This document shows positions 50,366 to 53,624 of a stretch of DNA of 64,000 bases, in pieces. A model generated the notes under the pieces. The model saw only the letters and a program-made list of their open reading frames with translations, was not told the DNA's origin and did not search any database. Each line of letters opens with the position of its first letter. The stretch's first letter is position 1. A program made the position numbers and the translations under genes. Source of the stretch: an uncultured Oscillibacter sp. (GTDB lineage: Bacteria; Bacillota; Clostridia; Oscillospirales; Oscillospiraceae); contig CAMBKF010000002.1 in NCBI GenBank assembly GCA_945868085.1, forward strand, positions 56,667 through 120,666. Reading direction: 5' to 3'.

Positions 50366-51709
50366 TTAGTAGCTGCCCAGGTCGGCGGACTTGTCGCCCT
50401 GGGGATCGACGCCGAACTTGTAGTCGTTGCCGGGGAGGATGGCGTTGAGGATCACGCCGCACAGGGCCGCGATGGCCAGGCCCGTGAGGGTGATGTCCGC
50501 GCCGCCCACGGTGAAGGTGATGCCGCCGGTGGAGCTGAAGCCCAGGCCGCTGACGAAGATCACCGCCGCGATGATGAGGTTCCGGGACTTGGTGAGATCC
50601 ACCTTGTTCTCCACCACGTTGCGCACGCCCACGGCGGAGATCATACCGTACAGCACGAAGCTGACGCCGCCCACGATAGCCGTGGGGATGGAGTTGACCA
50701 GGGCATCAAACTTGGGGGAGAAGGAGAGGATGATGGCATACAGGGCTGCCAGCCGGATGACCCGGGGATCATAGACCTTGCTCAGGGCCAGAACGCCGGT
50801 GTTTTCGCCGTAGGTGGTGTTGGCAGGGCCGCCGAACATACCGGCTACCGCCGTGGCCAGGCCGTCGCCCAGGAGGGTGCGGTGCAGGCCGGGATCGGCG
50901 ATGAAGTTCTTGCCGGTGGTGGAGGAGATGGCGGACACATCGCCGATGTGCTCCATCATGGCGGCGATGGCGATGGGAGCCATGACCAGGATGGAGGTCA
51001 GGTCAAACTTGGCGATGACAAACTGCTGCAGGCCCACAAAGTCGGCCTTGCCTACCTCGGTGAAGTCCACCTGGCCGGCGATGAGGGCCACGATGTAGCT
51101 GCCCACCACACCCAGCAGGATGGGGATGATCTTCACCATGCCCTTGCCCCAGATGTTGGCCACGATGATGATGGCGATGGCTACCAGGGCCAGCCACCAG
51201 CAGGTGGAGGCGTTGGAGATGGCGGTGCCGGAGAGGTTCAGGCCGATGAGGATGATGATGGGGCCGGTGACGATGGGGGGAAAGAAGCGCATGACCTTCT
51301 GAGCGCCCACCAGCTTGAACAGCAGGGCCAGCACCAGGTACAGCGCGCCGGCGATGACGATGCCGCCCAGGGCGTAGGGGAGCTTTTCCTCGCCGCTCAT
51401 GGTGGCGAACTTGCCCACATCCAGCTTGGCTACGGCCTCAAAGCCGCCCAGGAAGGCGAAGGAGGAACCCAGGAAGGCAGGCACCTTAAACTTGGTGCAC
51501 ACATGGAACAGCAGCGTGCCCAGACCCGCGAACAGGAGCGTTGTCTGGATGGAGAGCGGCAGGCCGTAGTTCTGCACCAGAATGGGCACCAGCACCGTAG
51601 CGCCGAACATGGCAAACAGGTGCTGCAGGCCCAGCAGCAGCATCCGGGGTACCCCCAGGGTCCGGGCGTCGTAGACAGGGTCGTTGCCCAAATTGTGTTT
51701 CTTGTTCAT
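50366..51709 (-). CDS. uraA: Uracil-xanthine permease (NCS2/UraA family)
   Basis: LLLGLQHLFAMFGATVLVPIL; QTTLLFAGLGTLLFH; GMFGGPANTTYGENTGVLALSKVYDPRVIR. Confidence 0.93.
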   Translation of the reverse strand: MNKKHNLGNDPVYDARTLGVPRMLLLGLQHLFAMFGATVLVPILVQNYGLPLSIQTTLLFAGLGTLLFHVCTKFKVPAFLGSSFAFLGGFEAVAKLDVGKFATMSGEEKLPYALGGIVIAGALYLVLALLFKLVGAQKVMRFFPPIVTGPIIILIGLNLSGTAISNASTCWWLALVAIAIIIVANIWGKGMVKIIPILLGVVGSYIVALIAGQVDFTEVGKADFVGLQQFVIAKFDLTSILVMAPIAIAAMMEHIGDVSAISSTTGKNFIADPGLHRTLLGDGLATAVAGMFGGPANTTYGENTGVLALSKVYDPRVIRLAALYAIILSFSPKFDALVNSIPTAIVGGVSFVLYGMISAVGVRNVVENKVDLTKSRNLIIAAVIFVSGLGFSSTGGITFTVGGADITLTGLAIAALCGVILNAILPGNDYKFGVDPQGDKSADLGSY

Positions 51710-51755: not shown

Positions 51756-51786
51756 AAAAAAATTGACCGGTAAAAATACCGGTCAA
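51756..51786 (-). terminator. Leader-region intrinsic terminator/attenuator upstream of uraA
   Basis: Minus strand TTGACCGGTA-TTTT-TACCGGTCAATTTTTTT (10-bp perfect stem, seven T). Confidence 0.9.
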
Positions 51787-51857
51787 AAAGGAAATATAGA
51801 AATAAAAACAGTGGCGGCAACAGTCGGGCATTTCTTTTTGGCAGTGGAAAAAGTCAT
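51783..51857 (-). CDS. Putative 24-aa leader peptide MTFSTAKKKCPTVAATVFISIFPF upstream of uraA
   Basis: GGGAGG RBS 7 nt before ATG; U-rich codons GTTTTTATTTCTATATTTCCTTTTTGA; its TGA lies inside the 5' arm of the leader terminator. Confidence 0.65.
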   Translation of the reverse strand: MTFSTAKKKCPTVAATVFISIFPF

Positions 51858-51889
51858 GTCGTTGCCTCCCTTCAAATTTCATCTCGCCT

Positions 51890-51918
51890 ATTATACGGCG
51901 GGGAGGCGCCAAAGGCAA
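51890..51918 (-). promoter_or_regulatory. Putative promoter of uraA leader
   Basis: Minus strand TTGCCT - 17 nt - TATAAT. Confidence 0.75.
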
Positions 51919-51951: not shown

Positions 51952-52494
51952 TCAGCGATTTTTGTCAAAAACCACCGAAAGACGGGGGAACAGTATCGCC
52001 GCCACGGCGATCTTCAAGGCGTCCCCCGGGAGGAACAGGAGCATGCCGTCCCGCAGCAGCCGCCCAAAGCTCCAGCCTTTGCCCATGTAGCCGTTGAGGA
52101 TCAGCGCCATGTATGGCAGCCCAACGGCGTAGAGCACCGCCAGGCCCACCACGCAGGCTAAAATAATGCGCAGGGGACGGCGGCTTTTCTTTGTAATAAG
52201 GCCCATGACCCATGCCGAGGGAATGAGCCCCAGCAGAAATCCAAAGGTGGGCTGGAACACATAGCCGAAGCCCCCGCCCAAGGTAAAAATGGGCAGGCCC
52301 ACCAGACCCAGCAGCACATACACCCCCTGACTGGCCGCGCCCCACACAGGCCCCAGCAGGCACCCGGCCATGGCCGTGAAGAAAAATTGCAGGGTGATGG
52401 AGGACACGCCCAGAGGGATCTTGATGAAAGCCCCGATGGCCGTCAGGGCCGCCAGCAGAGCCGTTCGGGCCAGCATTTTCGTCTTTTGACTCAT
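51952..52494 (-). CDS. bioY: Biotin transporter BioY (ECF S component)
   Basis: ARTALLAALTAIGAFIKIPLGVSSITLQFFFTAMAGCLLGP, GGFGYVFQPTFGFLLG. Confidence 0.93.
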   Translation of the reverse strand: MSQKTKMLARTALLAALTAIGAFIKIPLGVSSITLQFFFTAMAGCLLGPVWGAASQGVYVLLGLVGLPIFTLGGGFGYVFQPTFGFLLGLIPSAWVMGLITKKSRRPLRIILACVVGLAVLYAVGLPYMALILNGYMGKGWSFGRLLRDGMLLFLPGDALKIAVAAILFPRLSVVFDKNR

Positions 52495-52531: not shown

Positions 52532-52634
52532 TATAGGAAAAGTGAAAGCTTGTCAATCCTTTAATGCAAATTTGGTTTACAATTTTAGATTACGGTGGTA
52601 CACTATGGTATCATTTGGAACGGAGGCAGTGGGT

Positions 52635-53624
52635 ATGAGCCGGCAGCGCGTATGCGCCGCCTTGCAGGCGGCAGAGGGAGAATACCGATCCGGGGAAGAA
52701 TTGAGCCGGGACATCGGCATCAGCCGGGCCGCCGTGTGGAAGGCGGTGGAGGCGCTGCGCCGCCAGGGCTATGACATCGAGGCCCGCACGGGCAAGGGCT
52801 ACCGGCTGCTGCAGAGCCCGGATCTGCTGCGGCAGGATACGCTGGCGCATTATCTGACAGGGCAGCGGGAAAACTGGCAGGTGCTGGAGAGTGTGGACTC
52901 CACTAACTCCGCCTGCCGCCGCCTGGCCCTGGAGGGCGCTCCTGACGGCACGGTGGTGGTGGCAGACTGCCAGACGGCGGGCCGTGGCCGCCGGGGCCGC
53001 AGCTTCCAGTCCCCGGCGGGGAAGGGCCTGTTTTTCTCCATTCTGTGGCGGCCCGACTGCGCTCCGGAAAAGCTCCTGCCTCTGACGGCCCTCAGCGCCG
53101 TGGCTGCCTGCCGGGCCATCCGCCGGGTGACGGGCGCGGAGGTGCAGATCAAGTGGCCCAATGACCTGGTGCTCTCCGGCCGGAAGCTTGCGGGTATCCT
53201 TACGGAGATGGCCCTGGAGGGGGAGAGCGGCCATGTGTCCCATGTGGTGGTGGGTATCGGCATCAATGTCCACCAGCGGCCGGAGGATTTCGGCGGCGAG
53301 GTGGCGGACATCGCCACATCCCTGGACCTGGCTCTGGGTAAAAACGTGTGCCGGGCGCAGCTGGCGGCTGCCCTGCTGGAGGAGATGGACCTCCTGCGCC
53401 GGGAGGTGCTGTTTGCTCCGGAAAAATGGCTGGCGGATTACCGCTCGGCCTGCCTGAGCATCGGCCGCACGGTGCAGCTGATCCGGGGAGAGAGCCGGGA
53501 GCAGGTACAGGCTTTGGCTGTAGACGAGCAATATGGCCTGGTGGTGCGCCACCGGGACGGGACAGAGGAAACGGTGCGCAGCGGCGAGGTGTCGGTGCGT
53601 GGATTATACGGATATACGGAGTGA
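52635..53624 (+). CDS. birA: Bifunctional biotin protein ligase/biotin operon repressor
   Basis: HTH LSRDIGISRAAVWKAVEALRRQGYDIEARTGKGYRL; TAGRGRRGRSFQSPAGKGLFFSI; IKWPNDLVLSGRKLAGIL. Confidence 0.95.
   Translation: MSRQRVCAALQAAEGEYRSGEELSRDIGISRAAVWKAVEALRRQGYDIEARTGKGYRLLQSPDLLRQDTLAHYLTGQRENWQVLESVDSTNSACRRLALEGAPDGTVVVADCQTAGRGRRGRSFQSPAGKGLFFSILWRPDCAPEKLLPLTALSAVAACRAIRRVTGAEVQIKWPNDLVLSGRKLAGILTEMALEGESGHVSHVVVGIGINVHQRPEDFGGEVADIATSLDLALGKNVCRAQLAAALLEEMDLLRREVLFAPEKWLADYRSACLSIGRTVQLIRGESREQVQALAVDEQYGLVVRHRDGTEETVRSGEVSVRGLYGYTE

What the first reader, a model, noticed from the sequence alone, without database searches (positions are those of the whole stretch)
51756..51918. uraA leader looks like a UTP-sensitive, leader-peptide-coupled attenuator (pyrBI-like)
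Seen on the minus strand in order: TTGCCT-17-TATAAT promoter, GGGAGG RBS, a 24-codon ORF ending ...GTT TTT ATT TCT ATA TTT CCT TTT TGA, and a perfect 10-bp terminator stem with seven Ts whose 5' arm contains the leader stop codon, then uraA with its own RBS. Established: in enterobacterial pyrBI, low UTP stalls RNA polymerase in a U-rich tract so a closely following ribosome prevents terminator folding. Inference: the same logic may control uracil uptake here, whereas Firmicute pyr genes are usually regulated by PyrR. I saw no PyrR gene in this window.
Basis: partly seen in the sequence, partly recalled or inferred. Interest (0 to 1): 0.72.

Follow-up and report, generated by a model that had tools for sequence, protein, structure and literature searches.

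The report
Uracil-importer switch with leader peptide
In front of a gut bacterium's uracil-import gene lies a conserved on/off switch in which a ribosome reading a tiny throw-away peptide, closely following an RNA polymerase slowed in a U-rich stretch, is predicted to block a stop signal when the cell runs short of UTP; this logic is known from E. coli but was not expected in this branch of bacteria.

Summary

It is not chance. 25 of 25 uraA leaders from the genus have an SD-preceded ATG ORF ending at the terminator stem (0.78 expected from shuffles). So do 30 of 31 wider Oscillospiraceae-like loci, a group I chose by inspection, against 2 of 49 others, mostly Lachnospiraceae. The peptide is not conserved. 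What is conserved is the frame, U-ending codons (GTT for 41 of 46 valines, against 7% T-ending in uraA), and a stem that covaries with the stop codon (UGA/UCA, UAA/UUA).

In two genus members the same leader precedes a different uracil permease, about 35% identical. In 2.4 Mb of a sister genome it is the only leader of its kind. No PyrR over cut-off was found here. This genome and several near-complete sisters lack pyrB, pyrD and pyrE, so uraA is probably their pyrimidine supply.

Best explanation: a pyrBI/pyrE-like, UTP-sensitive, ribosome-coupled attenuator that arose separately in Bacillota. Leader translation is strongly inferred; UTP sensing rests on codon choice and gene function and is untested.

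The parts
51890..51918 (-). Promoter TTGCCT-17-TATAAT of the leader transcript
   Evidence: 24 of 25 genus leaders have TTGNNN-17-TATAAT 26-32 nt before the leader ATG
51865..51870 (-). Leader Shine-Dalgarno GGGAGG
   Evidence: SD of at least 4/6 in all genus leaders
51783..51857 (-). Leader ORF, 24 codons, stop UGA inside the terminator 5' arm
   Evidence: 25/25 genus and 30/31 wider loci; frame 0 open in 24/24, other frames closed in 9-10/24
51786..51821 (-). Pyrimidine/U-rich tract (last 12 codons): proposed UTP-sensitive slow zone
   Evidence: Position-specific U enrichment; U-ending codons against uraA usage
51809..51871 (-). Predicted upstream hairpin pairing the SD with the start of the pyrimidine tract (suggestive only)
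   Evidence: pairing 0.74 against 0.50 (body shuffled) and 0.69 (tract shuffled)
51756..51786 (-). Intrinsic terminator (attenuator): 10-bp stem, 4-nt loop, T7
   Evidence: covariation at 4 of 8 pairs
50366..51709 (-). uraA, NCS2 uracil permease, controlled gene
   Evidence: Pfam PF00860, NCBIfam TIGR00801 over cut-off; nearest solved structures are uracil permeases

Best explanation
A ribosome-coupled transcription attenuator that senses UTP and controls uracil import. RNA polymerase starts about 25 nt upstream of the leader ATG and a ribosome begins the leader ORF. When UTP is plentiful, polymerase passes the U-rich tract quickly, the first ribosome lags, the terminator folds and uraA stays off. 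When UTP is low, polymerase slows in the U-rich tract, the ribosome catches up and reaches the stop codon inside the 5' arm, the hairpin cannot form, and uraA is transcribed; uracil enters, is converted to UMP by upp and then to UTP. Shown from sequence: architecture, conserved frame, conserved terminator, U-specific codon choice, association with uracil permeases. Inferred: translation of the ORF, pausing, ribosome blocking, and UTP as the signal. More speculative: the tract also pairs with the leader SD, so that mainly a ribosome loaded before the tract is made can translate it, or so that the hairpin helps polymerase pause.
For: Leader ORF ending at the stem: 25/25 genus (0.78 expected), 20/30 wider under the strict rule (0.71 expected); 30/31 wider when ORFs running through the hairpin are allowed, against 2/49 others. 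The ORF 5' part is 34% identical on average between leaders yet always open; +1 and +2 frames have stops in 9 and 10 of 24. The peptide is not under purifying selection in close pairs. U-specific choice: V=GTT 41/46 (T-ending 0.89, uraA 0.07), I 0.74 vs 0.09, F 0.74 vs 0.19, S 0.70 vs 0.06. Stop codon inside a covarying stem: GC 16, AU 5, GU 3 at its middle base. Ordinary genes in a sister genome end a median 22 nt before a terminator stem, 5 of 213 under 5 nt. In E. coli a ribosome at a stop codon a few bp before a terminator cuts termination from about 90% to below 10%, and pyrBI relies on pausing to couple the two (PMC4824070). Same leader before a non-orthologous uracil permease in G017 and G019. 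Only leader of its kind in 2.4 Mb of G018. upp present, pyrB/pyrD/pyrE absent over cut-off in G000 and six genomes at least 95% complete.
Against: No expression, ribosome or pausing data were available. Bacillota are classed as uncoupled, 'runaway' transcribers (PMC13323073), where trailing ribosomes may rarely reach polymerase; the model needs low UTP to slow polymerase enough. A B. subtilis-type NusG pause motif (TTNTTT) is no more frequent than in shuffles. The tract holds C as well as U (26% vs 50%), so CTP or general pyrimidine sensing is not excluded.
Confidence: 0.76

Rival explanations
1. Leader-peptide attenuation sensing an amino acid or charged tRNA (Phe, Val, Ser, Ile): a ribosome stalled at such codons blocks the terminator.
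For: Tract codons are mostly F, V, S, I; a stalled ribosome there would also block the hairpin.
Against: No single amino acid is conserved; the bias lies in the third base, towards U against each genome's own usage. The gene is a uracil permease. No competing antiterminator was found.
Confidence: 0.06
2. The leader ORF is translated but the switch is not UTP-specific: it reports the general speed ratio of ribosome and polymerase (CTP, ppGpp, growth rate, antibiotics).
For: The tract is pyrimidine-rich, not pure U; coupling geometry responds to any change of relative speed (PMC4824070).
Against: U is chosen over C although these genomes prefer C-ending codons; the leader is tied to uracil permeases.
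Confidence: 0.1
3. Protein- or RNA-ligand-controlled attenuator (PyrR, another RNA-binding protein, or a riboswitch); the short ORF is incidental.
For: PyrR occurs in 4 of 25 genus members searched; uracil permeases are PyrR targets in other Bacillota (general knowledge).
Against: No PyrR over cut-off in G000 and no Rfam hit in the window. The one weak PyrR-RNA match in G000 lies between ftsH- and livJ-like genes. No conserved aptamer: the region between SD and tract is 34% identical. ORF conservation is unexplained.
Confidence: 0.04
4. Rho-dependent control: the pyrimidine-rich tract is a Rho loading site protected by translation.
For: Rho prefers pyrimidine-rich exposed RNA in runaway transcribers (PMC13323073).
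Against: No Rho over cut-off in G000, though the genome is 84.5% complete; a strong intrinsic terminator is present; the tract favours U over C.
Confidence: 0.02
5. Ordinary intergenic terminator and chance ORF.
For: Terminators upstream of genes are common (102 in G018).
Against: 25/25 and 30/31 conservation against under 1 expected; its own conserved promoter; extreme stop-in-stem geometry.
Confidence: 0.02

Closest known systems
E. coli/Salmonella pyrBI attenuator (leader peptide pyrL)
   Same: Short translated leader with a U-rich stretch before an intrinsic terminator; antitermination by a closely following ribosome; pyrimidine gene downstream (PMC4824070, PMC5021804; Roland, Liu and Turnbough 1988 cited there). 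In L018 and L065 the leader ORF runs through the hairpin to the uraA start, as I recall for pyrL.
   Different: Other phylum, no evident shared sequence (not formally compared), controls uptake instead of synthesis; in most members the ORF stops inside the 5' arm; the leader is shorter (about 24 codons against a 135-bp pyrL); SD can pair with the tract; no conserved run of Us at the transcript start for reiterative transcription.
E. coli rph(orfE)-pyrE attenuator (own knowledge)
   Same: Translation ends just before the attenuator, as here.
   Different: There the upstream ORF is a full gene, not a dedicated leader peptide.
PyrR/RF00515 attenuators of Bacillota
   Same: Transcription attenuation of pyrimidine and uracil-uptake genes.
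   Different: No PyrR over cut-off in this genome, no PyrR-RNA at this locus, and a ribosome is needed in the model.
Amino-acid leader-peptide attenuators (trp, his, phe)
   Same: Ribosome on a short ORF decides termination.
   Different: No regulatory codon, no antiterminator/terminator pair found.

Membership tests
pyrBI-type UTP-sensitive attenuator | Intrinsic terminator between promoter and structural gene | tested here: met
pyrBI-type UTP-sensitive attenuator | Leader ORF with ribosome-binding site that reaches the terminator | tested here: met
   (comparative; translation itself not measured)
pyrBI-type UTP-sensitive attenuator | U-rich tract in the ORF just upstream of the terminator | tested here: met
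pyrBI-type UTP-sensitive attenuator | Controls a pyrimidine-supply gene | tested here: met
pyrBI-type UTP-sensitive attenuator | Polymerase pausing in the tract that depends on UTP | not testable with these tools
   Needs in vitro transcription
pyrBI-type UTP-sensitive attenuator | Loss of regulation when leader translation is abolished | not testable with these tools
   Needs reporter fusions
pyrBI-type UTP-sensitive attenuator | Common descent with the enterobacterial pyrBI leader | not tested
   Within this clade the peptide and nucleotide body are unconserved, so homology is unlikely to be detectable; separate origin is inferred
PyrR-RNA (RF00515) | Anti-antiterminator structure scoring over the Rfam gathering score | tested here: not met
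PyrR-RNA (RF00515) | PyrR protein in the genome | tested here: not met
   (G000 84.5% complete; also absent over cut-off in G018, 97%)
Amino-acid leader-peptide attenuator | Run of codons for one relevant amino acid, conserved among relatives | tested here: not met
Amino-acid leader-peptide attenuator | Mutually exclusive antiterminator and terminator helices | tested here: not met
   only the terminator is conserved; the upstream hairpin does not compete with it
T-box or metabolite riboswitch | Match to a curated RNA family | tested here: not met

The most novel reading that the evidence does not exclude
Oscillospiraceae independently evolved an NTP-sensing, ribosome-coupled attenuator for uracil import, in a phylum classed as uncoupled. 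The same tract doubles as UTP sensor and as anti-Shine-Dalgarno, so only a ribosome loaded before polymerase clears the tract can keep the gene on: a kinetic gate that turns runaway transcription into the default off state.
Probability: 0.35. Interest if true: 0.8.

Novelty: new variant of a known kind. Interest (0 to 1): 0.64.

Why it matters
UTP-sensitive, ribosome-coupled attenuation is textbook knowledge for enterobacterial pyrBI and pyrE, while Bacillota are thought to use PyrR and, since the runaway-transcription work, not to couple ribosome and polymerase tightly. A conserved leader whose geometry only makes sense with a ribosome reaching the polymerase would show that coupling is used for regulation in Clostridia, and would explain how PyrR-less gut bacteria, several apparently dependent on external pyrimidines, control uracil uptake. 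The leader is a compact natural reporter of transcription-translation coupling in a major gut lineage. I found no description of it in the open-access library searched; most subscription journals were not covered.

Tried and rejected
NusG pause motif TTNTTT in the tract: not enriched over mononucleotide or codon shuffles. Rho: no match over cut-off in G000. Reiterative transcription at the start, as in E. coli pyrBI/codBA/upp: the bases after -10 vary, with no conserved run of three or more Ts at the start (inspection). PyrR: weak RF00515 match (39.8 bits, gathering 54) lies between ftsH- and livJ-like genes. upp, pyrB and the second NCS2 gene have no such leader. The upstream SD-tract hairpin: pairing is mostly what a purine-rich SD and pyrimidine-rich tract give by composition (0.74 vs 0.69 with only the tract shuffled, genus; 0.70 vs 0.60, wider), with a few compensatory pairs in close relatives; kept as suggestive only. 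A terminator with a U-rich approach upstream of a dus-like gene in G018 has no leader ORF. My first genome scan missed uraA because it used the longest ORF start; corrected.

Full report
OBSERVATION. On the minus strand: TTGCCT-17-TATAAT (51918-51890), GGGAGG, ATG at 51857, 24 codons, UGA at 51785-51783, a perfect 10-bp stem with 4-nt loop (51786-51763), seven Ts (51762-51756), then SD and uraA (51709-50366). The stop codon lies in the 5' arm of the stem. UraA is an NCS2 permease (TIGR00801 over cut-off, PF00860) whose nearest solved relatives are uracil permeases. The gene upstream is bioY-like (PF02632). No Rfam family scores in the window.

MORE THAN CHANCE. I took 80 uraA loci from public genomes and 24 more usable ones from the window's genus and read the DNA upstream. 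An SD-preceded ATG ORF of 15-40 codons with its stop within -3..+7 of the terminator stem is present in 25 of 25 genus leaders (the window's own included), with 0.78 expected when the DNA upstream of the stem is shuffled keeping dinucleotides. In a wider Oscillospiraceae-like set it is 20 of 30, with 0.71 expected. The remaining ten of that set also have such an ORF, ending 11 nt before the stem, inside the hairpin, or beyond it, giving 30 of 31 against 2 weak cases of 49 in the rest, which are mostly Lachnospiraceae. I drew the wider set by inspection, so its percentage is descriptive. On a UraA tree the label needs 3 changes against 33 in shuffles.

WHAT IS CONSERVED. The first half of the ORF has 34% mean pairwise identity, close to random, yet frame 0 is never interrupted, while +1 and +2 have stops in 9 and 10 of 24. 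The peptide changes freely: nonsynonymous codon changes equal or exceed synonymous ones in most close pairs. Three things stay. First, the promoter TTGNNN-17-TATAAT 26-32 nt before the ATG (24 of 25). Second, the tract: over the last dozen codons purines nearly vanish from third positions and U rises to 0.5-0.9. The choice is for U, not just for a pyrimidine or an amino acid: valine is GTT in 41 of 46 (T-ending 0.89, against 0.07 in the same genomes' uraA), isoleucine 0.74 vs 0.09, phenylalanine 0.74 vs 0.19, serine 0.70 vs 0.06. Third, the terminator: 4 of 8 pairs show double changes; the pair holding the middle base of the stop codon is G-C in 16, A-U in 5 and G-U in 3, so UGA...UCA becomes UAA...UUA with both stem and stop kept.

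UNUSUAL GEOMETRY. I fetched 2.4 Mb of G018, a sister genome whose UraA is 97% identical. Ordinary genes end a median 22 nt before a terminator stem; 5 of 213 end under 5 nt before it. Of 102 terminators lying 8-200 nt upstream of a gene, three have an SD-ATG ORF ending at the stem. uraA leads with 19 U and 28 pyrimidines in the last 36 nt; the other two (a recombinase and a glycyl-tRNA synthetase gene, named from their sequence by eye) have 13 and 11 U. A scan of other loci in hand found no further example with a U-rich tract.

TIED TO URACIL UPTAKE. A covariance model of the genus leaders gives 28 strong hits in 60 genomes, all in the genus, and a clear gap to noise below 30 bits. In G017 and G019, which have no close UraA orthologue, the leader precedes another NCS2 permease, 35% identical to the window's UraA in the G017 copy; the two are 70% identical to each other. 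In other genomes of the order that second permease lies next to pyrR (G027, G038) or upp (G026), which marks it as a PyrP-like uracil permease. The control element was kept while the transporter changed.

PHYSIOLOGY. G000 has upp over cut-off but no pyrB, pyrD or pyrE over cut-off, and the same holds for G003, G010, G014, G018, G022 and G024, all at least 95% complete. They look like pyrimidine auxotrophs that live on uptake (inference). None of these has PyrR over cut-off. The leader is also present in genus members with PyrR (G002, G007, G012, G015), so it is independent of PyrR.

MECHANISM. In E. coli a stop codon 5 bp before a terminator lowers termination from about 90% to under 10% through the ribosome, repression is lost when translation is removed, and the pyrBI leader relies on pausing to let the ribosome catch up (PMC4824070; also PMC5021804). 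The leader here has that geometry plus a U-rich tract immediately before it. The simplest reading is UTP-sensed, ribosome-coupled antitermination. Two distant members (L018, L065) have the leader ORF running through the hairpin to the uraA start. Bacillota are classed as runaway transcribers (PMC13323073; PMC7858274). That fits an off state by default, with low UTP slowing polymerase until the ribosome arrives, but it makes an experimental test more necessary.

A POSSIBLE EXTRA LAYER. In nearly every leader the start of the tract can pair with the leader's own SD. Mean pairing is 0.74, against 0.50 when the ORF body is shuffled but 0.69 when only the tract is shuffled, so most of it follows from composition. 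In the wider set it is 0.70, 0.49 and 0.60. A few compensatory changes occur in close pairs. It could act as a pause hairpin or restrict translation to a ribosome loaded early. I treat it as a lead.

NOT SHOWN. Translation of the ORF, pausing, and response to UTP. The set is mostly metagenome-assembled genomes and absences in incomplete genomes are weak. The literature search covered open-access papers only.

VERDICT. This is a conserved, lineage-wide attenuator for uracil import, working like pyrBI/pyrE but in a different phylum, on a different gene, and with the stop codon built into the terminator stem.

Noticed in passing
G000 and G003, G010, G014, G018, G022, G024 (whole-genome searches): No aspartate transcarbamoylase, PyrD or PyrE over cut-off but upp present: likely pyrimidine auxotrophy in part of this genus.
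   Followed up: partly
L226 (G017) and L221 (G019): The same leader precedes a non-orthologous uracil permease that in other genomes sits beside pyrR or upp: transporter swapped under a conserved switch.
   Followed up: yes
L018 and L065, upstream of uraA: Leader ORF runs through the hairpin and ends at or just before the uraA start, in L065 overlapping the uraA ATG.
   Followed up: partly
L075: Oscillospiraceae MAG whose UraA groups with Lachnospiraceae-type proteins in the tree but whose locus carries a leader ORF at a terminator.
   Followed up: no
G000:C9:32428-32532 (L098): Weak PyrR-RNA-like match (39.8 bits, gathering 54) between ftsH-like and livJ-like genes, not at a pyr gene.
   Followed up: partly
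window 51952-52494 (-) and 52542-53624 (+): bioY-like transporter gene divergent from a birA-like biotin ligase/repressor gene directly upstream of the uraA leader.
   Followed up: no
G018:C2, reverse-complement coordinate 515990 of the first 860000 bases: 18-codon SD-preceded ORF ending just before a terminator 44 nt upstream of a glycyl-tRNA synthetase-like gene; may be part of a T-box or chance.
   Followed up: no
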